From positions 1 through 41,309 of the IMG/VR virus record IMGVR_UViG_3300032294_001096: a stretch of DNA of 41,309 nt. One strand, given 5' to 3'. Below the pieces are notes generated by a model. That model did no database searches and was not told where the DNA came from. It saw only the letters and a program-made list of their open reading frames with translations. Positions 5,022 to 11,119 of this stretch are shown here, piece after piece. The DNA comes from a virus. The position numbers were made by a program, and so were the translations under genes. The first letter of the stretch is position 1; every line of letters begins with the position of its first letter.

Positions 5022-5480
5022 TCAAACCCCTCCCGGCGCCACGAAGGCGCAATAGGTCACGAACTTCGGATCAGGCTGGTCGTCGCTCAACGGCTCGGTC
5101 ATCCGGCCGACCTTCTGGCGAGGCATCCCGCAGAAATGCCCGGCCGCACCGCCGTCGCCTGGAATCGCGGTCGGCAGGATCAGGTCGCGACCGACCGTGA
5201 TCCATGCTCCGTATCGCTTCGAGAACATGCGCGCCGAGCCGTCGCGGCTCATGACGATTTGCTCGGCTTCCAGCTTCTCGCAGTCGCCGGTCACCGGGTC
5301 GCCGCCGCAGCACAGAATGCCACGGTGATCGCGAACGCCGTTGTAGATGTCATGCGCCCACGCCCCGCCGACGAGCAGCCCGAGCGCCACGACTGCCGCC
5401 AGCAGCAGCAGCACCAGCGCCACGACGGCGGCGAGGATCAGCCGCGTGGCAAACTTAAAAGGGTCGTCGCCTTCGTTCAT
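5022..5480 (-). CDS. Membrane-anchored or exported Cys-rich protein, 152 aa
   Basis: Starts MNEGDDPFK, where the ATG overlaps the upstream stop codon by 4 bp. Residues about 12-40 are strongly hydrophobic (a signal anchor ending near GGAWAHD). The rest would be periplasmic. It has four conserved-looking cysteines (CCGGDPVTGDC, then HFCGM) and ends in TYCAFVAPGGV. The pattern of a CC pair followed by DC and a late HxCG resembles small secreted alphaproteobacterial proteins of unknown role. Disulfide bonding in the periplasm is likely. Function unknown. Confidence 0.75.
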   Translation of the reverse strand: MNEGDDPFKFATRLILAAVVALVLLLLAAVVALGLLVGGAWAHDIYNGVRDHRGILCCGGDPVTGDCEKLEAEQIVMSRDGSARMFSKRYGAWITVGRDLILPTAIPGDGGAAGHFCGMPRQKVGRMTEPLSDDQPDPKFVTYCAFVAPGGV

Positions 5481-6310
5481 GCTGCCTTCTCCCGCATGAG
5501 CTCGCCGAGCCGCAGCTCGATCATCTCGGCCAGGATCACGGTGGAGGTGGCGCCCTTGCGCGCAGCCGCCATGACGCGGGCCGCTTCCTCGCAGTCGGCC
5601 ACGTCGATCTGCTCGAAGGCTGCGAACAACGCCTCGCCGGCGTCCCGCCAGTCCTTGCGCTTGTCCATCACGGAGCAGAGCGCGCGAATCACCGCGCTGC
5701 TGATCACGCCCGGCGCGTTGTTGTCGGTCTGCGTGATGCACTGCATCGCCGAGATGAAGGTATCCCGGCCGTACTGGGCAAAGCACGCGGCGGCCGCCTG
5801 CACCGACATCGTCTGTCCGGCCTTCTGCTGGTCTTTCGGGACCGGGTAGCGCAGCAGCTCCACCTCGGCGATTTCGCAAGCCTGCGCCAGAAGCATCGCC
5901 TCGGGCTCGCCGGCAGCAACCGCGGCTGCGTGCAACGCCATGCGGCTGATCTTCGTGACAGCGCCGTTGATGGCCACGAAGGCCTTCGCCTGCGTCTCCC
6001 GGTCGGCGATGACGACCTGGCAGGGCACCAACTCGACGCCGATCAGCGCGGCCGCCGTGGTCCTGTGCTGTCCGTCGACGATGGCGAACTTTCCGCCCTC
6101 GACCGGCGCGATGATCACCGGGGCGAAGCAGGACCAGCGGAACTGCTCGGCGATGCGCTGGACGTTGCGGCGGCCCTGATCGCGCAGAGCGCGCTGGTAG
6201 GTCTCGTCGACGACCAGGTCGGCGATCTTCACCCACTGCAGCATGGGAGCCGGGCCCGGGTCGGGGGCGGCGACGGGCTTGAACCCGTTCGTGGAGATCG
6301 AGCGCGTCAC
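5477..6310 (-). CDS. ParB/sulfiredoxin-fold protein
   Basis: A 277-residue protein with an N-terminal ParB-like (ParBc/Srx fold) domain, about residues 20-120. It opens with VKIADLVVDETYQR and contains the box-II-like motif DGQHRTTAAA, which in this fold binds nucleotide. The C-terminal half is helical and has no clear DNA-binding domain. The GTG start overlaps the previous stop as GTGA; a longer reading frame upstream is a shadow of the neighbour. In phages such proteins can act as CTPase/nuclease-like factors, partition proteins or transcription regulators. No parA is present, so plasmid-like partition is unlikely. Confidence 0.85.
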   Translation of the reverse strand: MTRSISTNGFKPVAAPDPGPAPMLQWVKIADLVVDETYQRALRDQGRRNVQRIAEQFRWSCFAPVIIAPVEGGKFAIVDGQHRTTAAALIGVELVPCQVVIADRETQAKAFVAINGAVTKISRMALHAAAVAAGEPEAMLLAQACEIAEVELLRYPVPKDQQKAGQTMSVQAAAACFAQYGRDTFISAMQCITQTDNNAPGVISSAVIRALCSVMDKRKDWRDAGEALFAAFEQIDVADCEEAARVMAAARKGATSTVILAEMIELRLGELMREKAA

Positions 6311-6561
6311 GCTGCCATCCTCCCCGTCCCAGCCGCCTCGGCCCGCCTCAGCGCGGCTGCGACGGTCGTGTGCCAAACGCCGAGAAACCGACCGATGCGA
6401 GCAGGAGGCCAACCGCGACCGGCCAGCAGGACGCAGACTTCCTGCCGCGCCGCGACGGTGTCGGCCGTGCGCTCCGCGCTGCCGAAGACGGACCGCCACG
6501 ACACGCGGTGGCGCTGGGCGATCTTCTGGATCTCGAGGATGAGCTGGCCGCGCGGGGTCAT
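6307..6561 (-). CDS. Small protein resembling DnaA domain IV
   Basis: An 84-residue protein whose residues about 36-74 match the DNA-binding domain IV of the replication initiator DnaA: ARQEVCVLLAGRGWPPARIG is followed by a second helix and the signature HTTVAAALRR (DnaA: DHTTVL.A). The ATPase domain is absent. It could bind DnaA boxes and compete with or mimic host DnaA, or be a simple helix-turn-helix regulator. It is coupled by 4-bp overlaps to both neighbours and lies next to the ParB-fold protein. Confidence 0.7.
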   Translation of the reverse strand: MTPRGQLILEIQKIAQRHRVSWRSVFGSAERTADTVAARQEVCVLLAGRGWPPARIGRFLGVWHTTVAAALRRAEAAGTGRMAA

Positions 6562-6776
6562 CGGGCGCGCTCCTTGTGGAGCGCAAGGATCACGTCGTCG
6601 ATGGCGGCGCCGTACGCCTTGACGCAGCCGTAAGCGTGCATCCGGTCTTCGAACGACCCCGTGTCGTCCTTCGCCACGATCAGCAACTGATCGTAGCGGT
6701 TCTCAAAAACCGTGCGGAGATCCTGCAAGACCTTGATCGTCTGGTCCTGGTAGTCGGCGGCGAGCATTGCGGACAT
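6558..6776 (-). CDS. Hypothetical phage protein, 72 aa
   Basis: Starts MSAMLAADYQDQTIKVL; the ATG lies 2 bp after the upstream stop. The protein is helical, with a RYDQLLIVAKDD segment and a single Cys. It overlaps the DnaA-IV-like gene by 4 bp. No motif is recognised. Confidence 0.7.
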   Translation of the reverse strand: MSAMLAADYQDQTIKVLQDLRTVFENRYDQLLIVAKDDTGSFEDRMHAYGCVKAYGAAIDDVILALHKERAR

Positions 6777-6778
6777 GG

Positions 6779-7081
6779 CTAGGCCACCTCCGCCAAGCGC
6801 GGCGACGGCTTGATCAGCAGGCGGGTCGAAGTCGTCTCGGACTCGTACCCGTCGAGTGCATCGCCGAGATCGGCGCGCAGGCGCTTCGTGTCGAGCCGCT
6901 TGCTGGTCGAGGTGGAGGCGGTGACGACGAACAGATCGCCGCGGGCCGCGCTCACGTCGCGCCGCTTGAACTCGTCCTTGAGCGCGTCGAGCTGCTCGGT
7001 CTGGGACTTGATGACCGTGTCGAGCTTGCCGATCTCGTCGGCGAGCTGCTCGGCGCTGAGATTGTGAAACGGGGAGGGCAT
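6779..7081 (-). CDS. First gene of the leftward operon; helical phage protein, 100 aa
   Basis: Residues about 8-45 form a coiled coil (SAEQLADEIGKLDTVIKSQT...). They are followed by a basic, Ser/Thr-rich segment with STSKRLDTKRLRADLGDAL and a C-terminal TSTRLLIKP. The second half resembles a type found in early operons of alphaproteobacterial temperate phages, function not known to me. A GGAGA Shine-Dalgarno lies about 7 bases before the ATG. It is the first gene behind the operator-controlled leftward promoter. Confidence 0.7.
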   Translation of the reverse strand: MPSPFHNLSAEQLADEIGKLDTVIKSQTEQLDALKDEFKRRDVSAARGDLFVVTASTSTSKRLDTKRLRADLGDALDGYESETTSTRLLIKPSPRLAEVA

Positions 7082-7113
7082 CGGCCGGTCTCCATCGGGG
7101 TGCGATGGAGGAG

Positions 7114-7163
7114 AGTATGTGCATTTTGCACTGATGTCGTCAACAGAAATGTGCGTTACGCAC
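7114..7163 (-). promoter_or_regulatory. Leftward early promoter with two repressor operators
   Basis: On the minus strand, TTGACG (7143-7138) and CATACT (7119-7114) form a sigma-70-type promoter with an 18-bp spacer, about 33 bp before the first leftward gene. A palindrome on the plus strand at 7119-7131 (GTGCATTTTGCAC) lies between -35 and -10. A second, perfect one at 7151-7163 (GTGCGTTACGCAC) lies just upstream. Their centres are 32 bp apart, about three helical turns. The same 13-bp site occurs at the repressor/cro promoter. Downstream, CTCCATCG/CGATGGAG (7090-7097/7103-7110) could form a hairpin that includes the ribosome-binding site. Confidence 0.75.
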
Positions 7164-7180
7164 GCTACTACATTCAGCCT

Positions 7181-7864
7181 CTATAAGCCCGGCGGCCTCG
7201 GCGGAGGGAGCGGGACGCCCGCTGGCCGGCCCTGCGACGGTGCGGGGCGCGTCGTAGGTGTCAGGACCGGGGGCGCTTCTTCAATGACGGGTGAAGGCAC
7301 AACTGGCGGCGCCGAGACAGTGCCCATAGGCGTGCCGGGCGGCGTCTCGTCTTTTGTCCAGACCTGCAAGGCATAGGTCGCCGCGGCCACAACGCCGATG
7401 GCGATGATCAACCGGAGCGGCGTGACTGAGGGCGGGTCATGCGCAACTCGTGCGGGCGGCGGCAACGCTGCCCAGCGCGGTGTGGCTTTCAGCGGCCAGA
7501 CCAGGTCGAGCTTGACGCCGAACGAGCCTTCGTCGCCGTCACGATCCCACCCGCCGACGATCTTCGCAGCACATTGCGCTCGCCCATTCGTGCCGGCCTG
7601 CTCTGTGATGATGGCGCGGAATTTCGGAGCGTGCTCGCGTGGGATGTGACCAACTGTCAGCCCGGCGATCTCAACCCGCACGGCGTTTGGATCGTGGCTA
7701 TTCGCGGGATCTGGAACCAGTTCAGCGATACACCGGAAGTTCGCGCCGTCCTCTGTGCGCCCGCCGACGATCTCTTCGAGTTCATCCTGGTAGTAGGATT
7801 CTCCGCGAACCTCGCCGAAGTAACTGCCGTCGCCTTCCAGTTCGACGACGTCCCGCATGGTCAC
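7181..7864 (-). CDS. HIRAN-domain protein with a C-terminal membrane anchor and Pro-rich tail
   Basis: A 227-residue protein (GTG start overlapping the repressor stop as GTGA; an ATG two codons later is equally good). Residues about 18-125 fit a HIRAN domain, with YQDELEEIVG and DPANSHDPNAVRVEIAG then VGHIPREHA. HIRAN domains bind DNA, notably 3' ends or damaged DNA. A single membrane span follows (about 150-169, RLIIAIGVVAAATYALQVW), and the last 55 residues are largely proline. The HIRAN part would face the cytoplasm and the tail the periplasm, or the reverse. Because it is co-transcribed with the repressor it is probably made in lysogens, suggesting superinfection exclusion or another lysogenic-conversion role (inference). 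Confidence 0.75.
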   Translation of the reverse strand: MTMRDVVELEGDGSYFGEVRGESYYQDELEEIVGGRTEDGANFRCIAELVPDPANSHDPNAVRVEIAGLTVGHIPREHAPKFRAIITEQAGTNGRAQCAAKIVGGWDRDGDEGSFGVKLDLVWPLKATPRWAALPPPARVAHDPPSVTPLRLIIAIGVVAAATYALQVWTKDETPPGTPMGTVSAPPVVPSPVIEEAPPVLTPTTRPAPSQGRPAGVPLPPPRPPGL

Positions 7865-8478
7865 ATCTCGATCATTGACCGCCGAACTCGGCCGATCACG
7901 GCGACAGGGCCGGCGGGGAAAATCGGCTCATGCGAAGGATCTGTCGAGACGGGCTCAAACCGATCAGGATTCGGGCGGAACCGCTTGTATGTTGCCTCGC
8001 CCTCGATCTGGATCACGTAGCAGCCATTGGGCACGAGCTTACGATCGCGCCGGTTCACAAGAATGATCGAGCCTGGTGGCGAGATGCGGTCCATGCTTGA
8101 CCCCACGACCTCGAGGGCAATCCACTCACCTTGTGGCAGGTCGCCCACGGATAGCTGCTTCGCCGACTCTAGATCATCGACCGTCTCGGGCATATCCAGC
8201 CGGCCGGCGCTTACCCAAGAAATCAGCGGGACCGACCGGGCAGGCGTTGCTCCGTCTATGGAGCCTTCTCCTGTGAGCAGCCAGCTCGTCGAGACGCGGA
8301 ATGCGTCGGCGTACTTCTCGGCGACGGTGCGCCGCAAGCCGCGCTCACCGCGTTCGTGCTGGGAATAGGTATCGTAGCTCCAGCCAAATCGGGTCGCCGC
8401 GGCGCGGGCAGTTGAGAACTGCGCTCGCGCTCGTGCTTGGCGCAGTCGTTCGGCTTGGTCATCGCGGGCGTCCACCAT
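7861..8478 (-). CDS. cI: CI/LexA-like phage repressor, S24 peptidase family
   Basis: A 205-residue repressor. The N-terminal helix-turn-helix domain (about 10-62) includes ARAAATRFGWSYDTYSQHER, followed by the typical STSWLLTGEG. The C-terminal S24 peptidase has the nucleophile S128 in VGSSMD, the general base K165 in ATYKRF and a candidate cleavage site A91-G92 in WVSAGRL. Self-cleavage stimulated by RecA would make the lysogen SOS-inducible. The ATG at 8478 lies only 2 bases from the operator 8481-8493 and has no Shine-Dalgarno, so the message may be leaderless. Longer in-frame starts would cross the control region and cro and are rejected. Confidence 0.9.
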   Translation of the reverse strand: MVDARDDQAERLRQARARAQFSTARAAATRFGWSYDTYSQHERGERGLRRTVAEKYADAFRVSTSWLLTGEGSIDGATPARSVPLISWVSAGRLDMPETVDDLESAKQLSVGDLPQGEWIALEVVGSSMDRISPPGSIILVNRRDRKLVPNGCYVIQIEGEATYKRFRPNPDRFEPVSTDPSHEPIFPAGPVAVIGRVRRSMIEM

Positions 8479-8551
8479 CCGTGCAGAATGCACGTGTAAG
8501 TGCGTGCGTTTCGCCTTGACACTGATGCGTGCGTTATGCACATATTGCGGC
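8479..8551. promoter_or_regulatory. Divergent switch region between repressor and cro: promoters and operators
   Basis: The 73-bp gap holds two clear 13-bp operators, GTGCAGAATGCAC (8481-8493) and GTGCGTTATGCAC (8529-8541). A degenerate third, GTGCGTTTCGCCT (8504-8516), lies between them. Centres are at 8487, 8510 and 8535, a three-site layout like lambda OR. The rightward promoter has TTGACA at 8516-8521 and CATATT at 8541-8546 (19-bp spacer), with the operator 8529-8541 covering the spacer exactly as in the leftward promoter. Expected transcription start is at about 8552, the cro ATG itself. A repressor promoter probably uses CATTCT inside operator 8481-8493 as its -10; no good -35 is visible. 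Confidence 0.8.
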
Positions 8552-8737
8552 ATGAGCAACCCGCCTGACATCCGCGACCTCCGCATTCGGCTCGGCTGGA
8601 CCCAGCAGCAGATGGCCGAATATCTCGGCTTGGATCGTTCGTCTGTCTCTCGGATGGAGAAGAGCCAGCCTTCCAAGGGGCCGACGCTCAAGCTTCTTGA
8701 ACATCTTGCGCGCATCGCCAAGGGCCGCGCAGCATGA
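8552..8737 (+). CDS. cro: Cro-like regulator, XRE-type helix-turn-helix
   Basis: A 61-residue, single-domain helix-turn-helix protein: IRDLRIRLGWTQQQMAEYLG then LDRSSVSRMEK, with a final helix TLKLLEHLARIA. It is divergent from the repressor and is the first gene of the rightward operon, the classic Cro position. An upstream ATG at 8504 is in frame but lies within the promoter and is rejected. With the predicted transcription start at about the ATG and no Shine-Dalgarno, it may be translated from a leaderless message. Its stop overlaps the next start as ATGA. Confidence 0.85.
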   Translation: MSNPPDIRDLRIRLGWTQQQMAEYLGLDRSSVSRMEKSQPSKGPTLKLLEHLARIAKGRAA

Positions 8738-8931
8738 CCCCATTCGCGCTCCCCTTCTGGCGCGATACGCGCGGCCAGCTTTCCAGCGGTGGGCTGGCTG
8801 GCCGCGCACTCCTTTCACCCATTGCGGCCTCCCCCGTGGGCCGCATGAGCGGCCGGCCCTGCGTCCCCCAGCCTGCAACCGGCCGGCCGCTCCACCAGTT
8901 CGGCAACTCCCTTGATGGGAGGCCAGCATGA
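8734..8931 (+). CDS. Small hypothetical early protein, 65 aa
   Basis: The reading frame is joined to both neighbours by 4-bp ATGA overlaps. The product has no recognised domain. It is rich in Gly, Pro and Arg and contains LHQFGNS near its end. A nearly identical coding stretch (LYQFGAS) recurs in the possible gene at 9262-9555, in the same frame. Function unknown. The overlaps are the main support. Confidence 0.5.
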   Translation: MTPFALPFWRDTRGQLSSGGLAGRALLSPIAASPVGRMSGRPCVPQPATGRPLHQFGNSLDGRPA

Positions 8932-9272
8932 CGCCTTGCAGGAAGTGCGGCGCGCCCCGCGTGGCCTACAATGACGCGGGCAAGCCCGGCGCATTCAGGT
9001 ACGCCTGCCGCCCTTGCGAGCGCGCTCGTGTTCAAGCTCATCGCGTCAAGAACCCAGATCGCGGCGTGTCGTCCTTGCAGCGCAGAGCGCACAAGGCAGT
9101 CGAGAATGCGCTGATCCGGGGAACTCTTCACCGGAACCCTTGCATGGTGTGTGGCACGCAGGATCGCGTGCAGGCGCACCATGAAGACTATTCCCGCCCT
9201 CTTGATGTGGTCTGGCTGTGCCCGACGCATCACAAGGCGCGGCACAGGGAGATGCGCTGCAATGCCGCGTAG
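8928..9272 (+). CDS. Small zinc-binding HNH-like protein
   Basis: A 114-residue protein with an N-terminal zinc knuckle (CRKCG, then CRPC, about residues 4-30). Its C-terminal half has a ββα-metal (HNH-like) pattern: CMVCG, QAHHEDYSRPL, and a final CPTHH. The His pair before EDYSRP is where HNH nucleases place their catalytic His, so it may nick DNA. It may also be a zinc-finger protein without nuclease activity. It belongs to the rightward early operon and overlaps the preceding gene by 4 bp. Confidence 0.75.
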   Translation: MTPCRKCGAPRVAYNDAGKPGAFRYACRPCERARVQAHRVKNPDRGVSSLQRRAHKAVENALIRGTLHRNPCMVCGTQDRVQAHHEDYSRPLDVVWLCPTHHKARHREMRCNAA

Positions 9273-10309: not shown

Positions 10310-11119
10310 ATGTTCAAGATTGTTACAGCAGACCAGCGACGCGAAGCACCTCGAGGCGTAAAGGCGCTCATTGTCGGGCCGGCCGGCGTCGGCAAGACCA
10401 GCCTTCTGCGCACCCTGAACCCCAAGACCACGCTGTTTGTCGACCTCGAGGCCGGCGACCTGTCGGTGCAGGATGTGCCGGCCGACACCATGCGCCCGCG
10501 CACATGGGATGAATGCCGCGATCTTGCCGCGTACCTTGGCGGCGCCAACCCGGCACTGCCCGAGACGGCCGCGTACAGCAAGGCGCACTACGATCGCGTC
10601 GTGTCCGAGGTCGGCGATCCCAAAGCGCTCGAAAAGTACGAAACTTATTTCATTGACTCGATCACGGTGGCCGGTCGCCTTTGCTTTCGCTGGGCGTCGC
10701 AGCAACCGGAGGCTATTTCCGATCGCAACGGCAAGCCGGACATCCGCGGCGCTTACGGGCTGCATGCCCGTGAGATGATCGCCTGGCTGTCCCAGCTGCA
10801 GCACGTTCGCGCGAAGAACGTCATCTTCGTCGGCATCCTTGAGTTCGTCACCGACGAGTTCAATCGCGGATCCTGGCAACCTCAGATCGAGGGCAGCAAG
10901 ACCGGCCGAGAACTGCCCGGCATCGTCGACCAGGTCATCACCTACCAGCACATCGTCTTCGAGGAGGGGGAGCAGCCTCTTCGCGCACTCGTGTGCCAGC
11001 AACCCAACCCCTTCAACTACCCGGCAAAGGATCGCTCAGGCCGGCTTGAACTTTATGAAAAGCCCGACCTCGGCGCTCTCATCTCCAAGATCACCGCAAC
11101 CAAGGCCAAGGCCGCCTAA
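10310..11119 (+). CDS. RecA-fold phage ATPase, Sak4-like recombinase
   Basis: A 269-residue P-loop ATPase with Walker A GPAGVGKTS (residues 23-31), an early acidic strand FVDLEAG and a Walker-B-like strand YFIDSI (about 113-118). The C-terminus is basic. The size, the motif spacing and the position between small nucleases and a possible ssDNA-binding protein match phage AAA_24/Sak4 proteins. These promote single-strand annealing and recombination with help from an SSB. A helicase-loader role is less likely because a primase-helicase is encoded downstream. Confidence 0.8.
   Translation: MFKIVTADQRREAPRGVKALIVGPAGVGKTSLLRTLNPKTTLFVDLEAGDLSVQDVPADTMRPRTWDECRDLAAYLGGANPALPETAAYSKAHYDRVVSEVGDPKALEKYETYFIDSITVAGRLCFRWASQQPEAISDRNGKPDIRGAYGLHAREMIAWLSQLQHVRAKNVIFVGILEFVTDEFNRGSWQPQIEGSKTGRELPGIVDQVITYQHIVFEEGEQPLRALVCQQPNPFNYPAKDRSGRLELYEKPDLGALISKITATKAKAA

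What the first reader, a model, noticed from the sequence alone, without database searches (positions are those of the whole stretch)
7181..7864. HIRAN-domain membrane protein in the lysogeny operon
A HIRAN domain (DNA-end/damage binding in known proteins) joined to a membrane anchor and a proline-rich tail, co-transcribed with the repressor, is an odd combination. Expression in the lysogen suggests defence against incoming DNA at the membrane: superinfection exclusion by recognising free phage DNA ends is a testable idea.
Basis: partly seen in the sequence, partly recalled or inferred. Interest (0 to 1): 0.7.

Follow-up and report, generated by a model that had tools for sequence, protein, structure and literature searches.

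The report
Lysogeny-operon membrane protein with HIRAN domain
A temperate phage makes, in the same transcript as the repressor that keeps it dormant, a membrane-anchored protein whose domain is related to one that grips DNA ends; many unrelated phages carry such a gene in the same spot, so it probably guards the dormant phage's host against incoming DNA, although nobody has tested this.

Summary
On the minus strand (7864..7181) lies a 227-aa protein with a Pfam HIRAN domain above the curated cutoff, a confident HIRAN core in AlphaFold2, one C-terminal transmembrane helix and a proline-rich tail. Its GTG start overlaps the stop of a CI-like S24 repressor. This is lambda's OR/OL plan, with HIRAN where rexAB sits. 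The arrangement is not unique. In 15 of 38 related virus loci the HIRAN gene is the next gene downstream of a repressor, against 1.2% of other genes, and most of the family carries a membrane anchor. In five loci the repressor-side dyads clearly recur beyond HIRAN. Streptococcal prophages have the same linkage, and a 2025 paper names such a gene thaL, without testing it in the passages read. So the kind is already named; this is a rex-position variant with a C-terminal anchor. Best explanation: a lysogen-expressed, membrane-tethered DNA 3'-end binder acting on incoming linear DNA (superinfection exclusion). Function is inferred. Main rival: tuning the phage's own lysis-lysogeny switch, as RexA or Hex do.

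The parts
7181..7864 (-). HIRAN - transmembrane - proline-rich gene (227 aa from GTG; alternative ATG at 7858)
   Evidence: ORF; PF08797 5.5e-7; relatives; structure
7502..7828 (-). HIRAN domain, residues 13-121, with pocket-equivalent residues Y24, N55, H57, D58, H73 and F115
   Evidence: Pfam residues 13-88; strands and helices to residue 120; profile alignment to HLTF; column counts; F115 = HLTF F142 was matched by eye
7355..7417 (-). predicted transmembrane helix, residues 150-170; flank charges put HIRAN in the cytoplasm and the tail outside
   Evidence: AlphaFold2 helix, hydropathy 1.9, flank charges +1 inside / -2 outside
7184..7354 (-). proline-rich tail, residues 171-227, predicted outside the membrane; not shared with the close relatives
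7861..8478 (-). CI-like repressor, HTH plus S24 peptidase (205 aa from ATG 8478); its stop overlaps the HIRAN GTG
   Evidence: Pfam S24 2.8e-12 and HTH_31; phrog_4 transcriptional repressor 1.3e-32; junction sequence
8553..8737 (+). Cro-like HTH protein, divergent from cI
   Evidence: HTH_3 4.4e-10
8481..8493 (.). OR-type palindrome GTGCAGAATGCAC
8529..8541 (.). OR-type palindrome GTGCGTTATGCAC, inside the PR spacer
8516..8546 (+). PR-like promoter TTGACA ... ACATATT
   Evidence: read from sequence
7119..7131 (.). OL-type palindrome GTGCATTTTGCAC, inside the PL spacer
7151..7163 (.). OL-type palindrome GTGCGTTACGCAC
7114..7143 (-). PL-like promoter TTGACG-18-CATACT, the only promoter-like hit in 6500-9000
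   Evidence: same layout as PR
6779..7081 (-). first gene of the presumed PL operon (100 aa), downstream of OL
   Evidence: weak similarity to phrog_434

Best explanation
The gene is a rex-position lysogeny gene. In the lysogen the repressor silences PL and PR through the GTGC-N5-GCAC operators, while the cI-HIRAN message is made from the maintenance promoter (layout shown; transcription inferred). The product is inserted in the inner membrane by one C-terminal helix, with the HIRAN domain facing the cytoplasm and a proline-rich tail outside (predicted). HIRAN is expected to bind free 3' DNA ends, because the pocket residues of HLTF HIRAN are kept (residues shown, binding inferred). Tethered at the membrane, it most likely catches or flags the ends of linear DNA arriving from a superinfecting phage, and so delays circularisation or replication or triggers a membrane response: a prophage-encoded exclusion or defence protein (inferred).
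For: HIRAN domain and fold. Pocket columns in 39 family members: N55 39/39, D58 39/39, Y/H/F at the HLTF Y93 position 39/39, Y/H at the H110 position 38/39, F/Y at the F142 position 38/39. cI-HIRAN overlap and the OR/OL bracket. Conserved linkage: the next gene downstream of a repressor in 15/38 viral loci against 7/596 other genes, spread over the tree with 11 label changes, at least 4 forced by supported branches. Repressor-side dyads recur downstream of HIRAN in L113, L118, L105, L114 and L096. Membrane anchor at either end: 22 of 40 phage members with a TM, 6 more with a short amphipathic N-terminus, plus TM-HIRAN downstream of the repressor in streptococcal phages. Linkage to S24, short XRE and ImmR/ImmA-type modules fits a general lysogenic cargo gene. 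The window's nearest cI relatives hold a different gene or none in that slot, as expected of interchangeable exclusion genes. Prophage genes at this position are known exclusion proteins (RexAB, PMC11077077, PMC12894663), and inner-membrane proteins that block phage DNA entry are known (SieA, PMC11436027).
Against: No experiment on any member. PADLOC gives only a marginal match to a candidate system (PDC-M03B, E 0.005). One supported clade of cI-linked members (L096, L099, L101, L104) has no TM, so the anchor is not universal. Anchored HIRAN proteins also occur on chromosomes away from repressors (Lysobacter, Luteimonas, Nitrosomonas-type genomes), so the domain is not dedicated to exclusion. 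HLTF Y72 is only loosely conserved. RexA's DNA binding is not strictly needed for its exclusion (PMC11077077), so end-binding need not be the exclusion mechanism here.
Confidence: 0.45

Rival explanations
1. It tunes the phage's own lysis-lysogeny switch. Made with the repressor, it binds DNA ends or ssDNA during damage and alters RecA-driven repressor cleavage or the return to lysogeny, as 434 Hex or lambda RexA do.
For: Hex is co-expressed with the 434 repressor from PRM and blocks RecA-stimulated repressor autocleavage (PMC3564112). RexA binds DNA and biases the lambda switch (PMC11077077). The window's repressor has an S24 peptidase. HIRAN ligands (3' ends, ssDNA) are RecA substrates.
Against: About half of the linked repressors show no S24 domain (L089, L094, L105, L114, L115, L117, L124), and an ImmR/ImmA-type module has one too, so a role in RecA autocleavage alone cannot explain the linkage. 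A membrane anchor is not obviously useful for this.
Confidence: 0.25
2. It protects the prophage from being removed by natural transformation, or senses imported ssDNA: membrane HIRAN catches the 3' end of single strands entering through the competence pore.
For: Pneumococcal prophages are under 'chromosomal curing' pressure, and the phiRMV8 lysogeny module holds thaL; the same prophage responds to ssDNA import (PMC12637031). HIRAN specificity for 3' ends and a membrane location would fit.
Against: thaL itself was not tested in the passages read. The window's host, and whether it is transformable, are unknown. Similar genes occur in phages of many groups.
Confidence: 0.12
3. A general host-type gene picked up by phages: a membrane-tethered HIRAN protein for DNA repair, replication or nucleoid attachment that gives lysogens a mild fitness gain, with no exclusion role.
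For: Chromosomal, non-phage members with N-terminal TM exist (Lysobacter, Luteimonas, Kangiella, Nitrosomonas-type), and HIRAN is known mainly from repair proteins.
Against: Strong, repeated retention directly behind the repressor and inside the operator bracket points to a function in lysogeny.
Confidence: 0.15

Closest known systems
[quoted passage not shown]
   Same: HIRAN plus TM, in the lysogeny module of a C1-regulated prophage; the streptococcal phages examined here have repressor then TM-HIRAN then integrase.
   Different: Different phage group. The window's gene overlaps cI, has one C-terminal TM plus a proline-rich tail, and sits between OR and OL with no integrase beside it. ThaL has no tested function in the passages read, and the phiRMV8 sequence itself was not compared.
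Lambda RexA/RexB exclusion genes
   Same: Same slot: downstream of cI, same strand, between OR and OL; DNA-binding plus membrane functions.
   Different: One protein instead of two; HIRAN instead of the RexA fold; one TM instead of a RexB channel. Not homologous on any test here.
434 Hex
   Same: Co-encoded with the repressor, overlapping its end.
   Different: Hex overlaps the repressor frame and acts on RecA-mediated cleavage; no homology was tested.
HLTF/Rad5 HIRAN domain
   Same: Fold and most DNA-contact residues.
   Different: HLTF HIRAN is part of a SWI/SNF fork-remodelling translocase; here it is alone on a membrane anchor.
HipN/HipL HIRAN proteins (PMC8262856)
   Same: Prokaryotic HIRAN predicted to sense DNA ends, in conflict-related loci.
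   Different: No HipS domain or Hip kinase here. The window family keeps an aromatic at the HLTF F142 position, which most bacterial HIRANs are reported to lack.
P22 SieA
   Same: Prophage inner-membrane protein acting against incoming DNA is the model proposed here.
   Different: No sequence relation was tested; SieA blocks passage of DNA, while here DNA-end capture is proposed.

Membership tests
HIRAN domain (PF08797) | Match above the curated cutoff | tested here: met
   29.8 bits against 24.7
HIRAN domain (PF08797) | HIRAN beta-barrel fold | tested here: met
   AlphaFold2 core pLDDT 90-96; top PDB matches all HLTF HIRAN, prob 0.9-1.0, E about 1e-3, modest TM-score; profile match to HLTF 2e-7
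HIRAN domain (PF08797) | DNA-contact residues of HLTF (Y72, N91, Y93, D94, H110, F142) | tested here: met
   Y24, N55, H57, D58, H73, F115 in the window; conservation counts; F142 match by eye
HIRAN domain (PF08797) | Binds 3' DNA ends | not testable with these tools
   needs purified protein
ThaL (TM-HIRAN of lysogeny modules) | HIRAN plus transmembrane segment | tested here: met
ThaL (TM-HIRAN of lysogeny modules) | Encoded in the lysogeny module beside the repressor | tested here: met
   cI stop overlaps the HIRAN start
ThaL (TM-HIRAN of lysogeny modules) | Homology to the phiRMV8 ThaL sequence | not tested
   that record was not identified; other pneumococcal phage HIRAN proteins were found through L054
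Rex (RexAB-like) | Position between cI and PL/OL, same strand as cI | tested here: met
Rex (RexAB-like) | RexA (RdgC-like) fold | tested here: not met
   fold matches are HIRAN only
Rex (RexAB-like) | Partner multi-TM RexB gene | tested here: not met
   no room for another gene between the HIRAN stop (7181) and OL (7163)
HipN/HipL | HipS-like domain or Hip kinase | tested here: not met
   Pfam shows HIRAN only
Known anti-phage defence system (PADLOC-DB) | Significant match to a system protein | tested here: inconclusive
   PDC-M03B E 0.005 over 41 residues only
Superinfection exclusion protein | Reduces superinfection of lysogens | not testable with these tools
   no experiment possible

The most novel reading that the evidence does not exclude
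Membrane-tethered HIRAN proteins are a widespread, so far untested class of prophage exclusion proteins that recognise incoming DNA by its free 3' ends at the inner membrane, independent of sequence, deployed from the rex slot of many unrelated temperate phages.
Probability: 0.3. Interest if true: 0.8.

Novelty: new variant of a known kind. Interest (0 to 1): 0.55.

Why it matters
If the exclusion reading is right, lysogens would carry a sequence-independent 'open DNA end at the membrane' detector. That is a simple way to tell injected linear DNA from the closed chromosome, and it would tie the HIRAN domain, known from fork repair, to phage competition. Even without that, the conserved repressor-HIRAN operon gives a defined gene set and pocket mutants for a direct test.

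Tried and rejected
Close relatives of the window protein: only one IMG/VR locus with a single-sequence query, so profile queries were used. NCBIfam: no family for it. Rex membership: rejected on fold and on the missing RexB partner. An intrinsic terminator between HIRAN and OL: the only minus-strand hit is the operator palindrome itself. A single 15-base OR dyad of the window scanned downstream with mismatches is not significant (56/300 shuffles); the bracket rests on the exact GTGC-N5-GCAC pattern, 4 of 5 copies in two gaps of 75-100 bp (Poisson about 9e-6 and 5e-6 for two copies in each gap; the pattern was chosen after seeing the sites, so these are optimistic). L124's recurrence is weak (12/300). 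Wider replication in bacterial genomes: 4/395 and 27/399 genomes had any hit (many of them weak), and no new repressor-linked case appeared among the loci examined, so the linkage is mainly a phage-set result. F142 to F115 was matched by eye because hhalign stopped earlier. Host of the phage: not determined; the terminase is HK97/HK022-like at 41-45% identity.

Full report
OBSERVATION. The ORF is real and lies on the minus strand, 7864..7181. It matches Pfam HIRAN above the curated cutoff. AlphaFold2, given 39 related sequences, predicts a confident HIRAN core and a separate helix at residues 150-170. The best PDB matches are all HLTF HIRAN, with E about 1e-3 and modest TM-scores because the tail and helix do not align; a family profile finds HLTF at 2e-7. 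The helix scores as a transmembrane segment, and flank charges put HIRAN inside and the tail of 19 Pro in 57 residues outside. The frame has the codon-position GC pattern of its neighbours.

ANATOMY. Upstream on the same strand is a CI-like repressor with HTH and S24 peptidase. Its TGA stop overlaps the GTG of the HIRAN gene, and an ATG lies 6 nt further. Divergent from cI is a Cro-like gene at 8553-8737. The palindrome GTGC-N5-GCAC occurs 5 times in 41 kb (1.7 expected). Two copies lie in the cI/cro gap (8481, 8529) and two in the gap behind HIRAN (7119, 7151); the chance of two copies in each gap is about 5e-6 and 9e-6, with the reservation that the pattern was defined from these sites. Each pair sits by a TTGAC(A/G)...ATGCACATA promoter with an operator in its spacer: PR towards cro, and PL towards the 100-aa gene at 7081..6779. 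This is the lambda plan PL/OL - rex - cI - OR/PR - cro, with HIRAN in the rex slot. Transcription itself was not measured.

FAMILY. Profile searches gave 41 viral and 80 bacterial-genome loci. Anchors are common: of 40 phage rows, 21 have an N-terminal TM, one (the window) a C-terminal TM and 6 a short amphipathic N-terminus. More distant members L126 and L054, and pneumococcal phage IPP12, also have HIRAN followed by C-terminal TM, so the anchor appears at either end. A clade of four repressor-linked members has none.

LINKAGE. Pfam S24 and HTH_3 hits on the viral records and home-made HMMs show the HIRAN gene as the next gene downstream of a repressor, same strand, within 350 bp, in 15 of 38 viral loci, against 7 of 596 other genes (binomial p about 1e-19; related loci are not fully independent). 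Five of 47 genome loci show it too, two of them the same elements as viral loci. In L099 and L101 the cI stop and HIRAN start overlap, as in the window. On a HIRAN tree the linked label needs 11 changes, at least 4 of them forced by supported branches, so it is not one clade. Dyads from the repressor side recur past HIRAN in L113, L118, L105, L114 and L096 (0 or 1 of 300 shuffles), and weakly in L124 (12/300). In L118 a lipoprotein-like gene lies between HIRAN and the distal dyads. The linked repressors include S24 and non-S24 types, and streptococcal phages show cI then TM-HIRAN then integrase, and HTH - DUF955 (ImmA-type) - HIRAN - integrase. The window's own nearest cI relatives have a secreted protein (L127) or no clear gene (L128) in the slot, so the slot carries exchangeable cargo.

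DNA-BINDING POCKET. HLTF HIRAN holds a dinucleotide between Y72 and Y93 (PMC4666394). Aligned by hhalign, the window has Y24, N55, H57, D58 and H73 at Y72, N91, Y93, D94 and H110. In 39 members N55 and D58 are invariant, position 57 is always Y, H or F, and position 73 is Y or H in 38. By eye F115 matches HLTF F142, which is needed for duplex binding; it is F or Y in 38 of 39, whereas most HipN/HipL HIRANs lack it (PMC8262856). Binding by this family is therefore likely but untested.

FUNCTION. Position among exclusion genes, anchor, cytoplasmic HIRAN, retained pocket and exchangeable slot together favour a lysogen-expressed protein acting on incoming linear DNA at the membrane (confidence 0.45). 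Rivals are tuning of the phage switch (Hex, RexA; 0.25), protection against transformation or sensing of imported ssDNA (0.12), and a general repair-type passenger (0.15). The mix of repressor types argues against a role limited to RecA-driven S24 cleavage.

NOVELTY. [quoted passage not shown] the phiRMV8 sequence itself was not compared. The kind is thus named. I found no paper describing the wide repressor linkage, the operator bracket or a function (open-access library only). I file the window's gene as a new variant of that kind: C-terminal anchor, proline-rich outer tail, rex slot, non-streptococcal phage.

Noticed in passing
L104 6408-6899, L112 6357-7220, L118 6357-7211: Lipoprotein- or signal-peptide-like genes (short hydrophobic start, LxGC-type box read by eye) directly follow HIRAN in several cI-HIRAN phages; in L118 the gene lies before the distal operators, so it may be part of the lysogeny operon.
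   Followed up: partly
L127 5396-5926: The closest relative of the window's repressor is followed, in the same slot, by a signal-peptide-like protein instead of HIRAN.
   Followed up: partly
L219, L225-L229: A separate N-terminal-TM HIRAN clade in bacterial genomes of the Nitrosomonas order, not next to a repressor; possibly a chromosomal gene of its own.
   Followed up: partly
L209 2730-4417 (Streptococcus phage phiARI0995b): HTH - DUF955 (ImmA-type) - HIRAN - integrase order: HIRAN also joins an ImmR/ImmA-type lysogeny module.
   Followed up: partly
L003 6035-6484 (Nostoc phage Nsp-JY10): HIRAN with a MGLLEWLFGK start lies convergent, 2 bp from an XRE/S24 repressor; also in the immunity region but in the other orientation (as in L097 and L119).
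   Followed up: partly
L107 (=L002) 5983-6426, L120, L103: A HIRAN subgroup without a clear TM sits among tail genes instead of the lysogeny region.
   Followed up: no
window 5477-6586 (-): ParB-like/DUF6551 protein (phrog_1033 1.3e-21) in the presumed PL operon.
   Followed up: no
window 8928-9272 (+): 114-aa Cys/His-rich protein that reads like an HNH-type or zinc protein, directly after cro; no Pfam match.
   Followed up: no
window 10310-11119 (+): AAA_24 ATPase (2.9e-40), of the kind often found among phage recombination genes.
   Followed up: no
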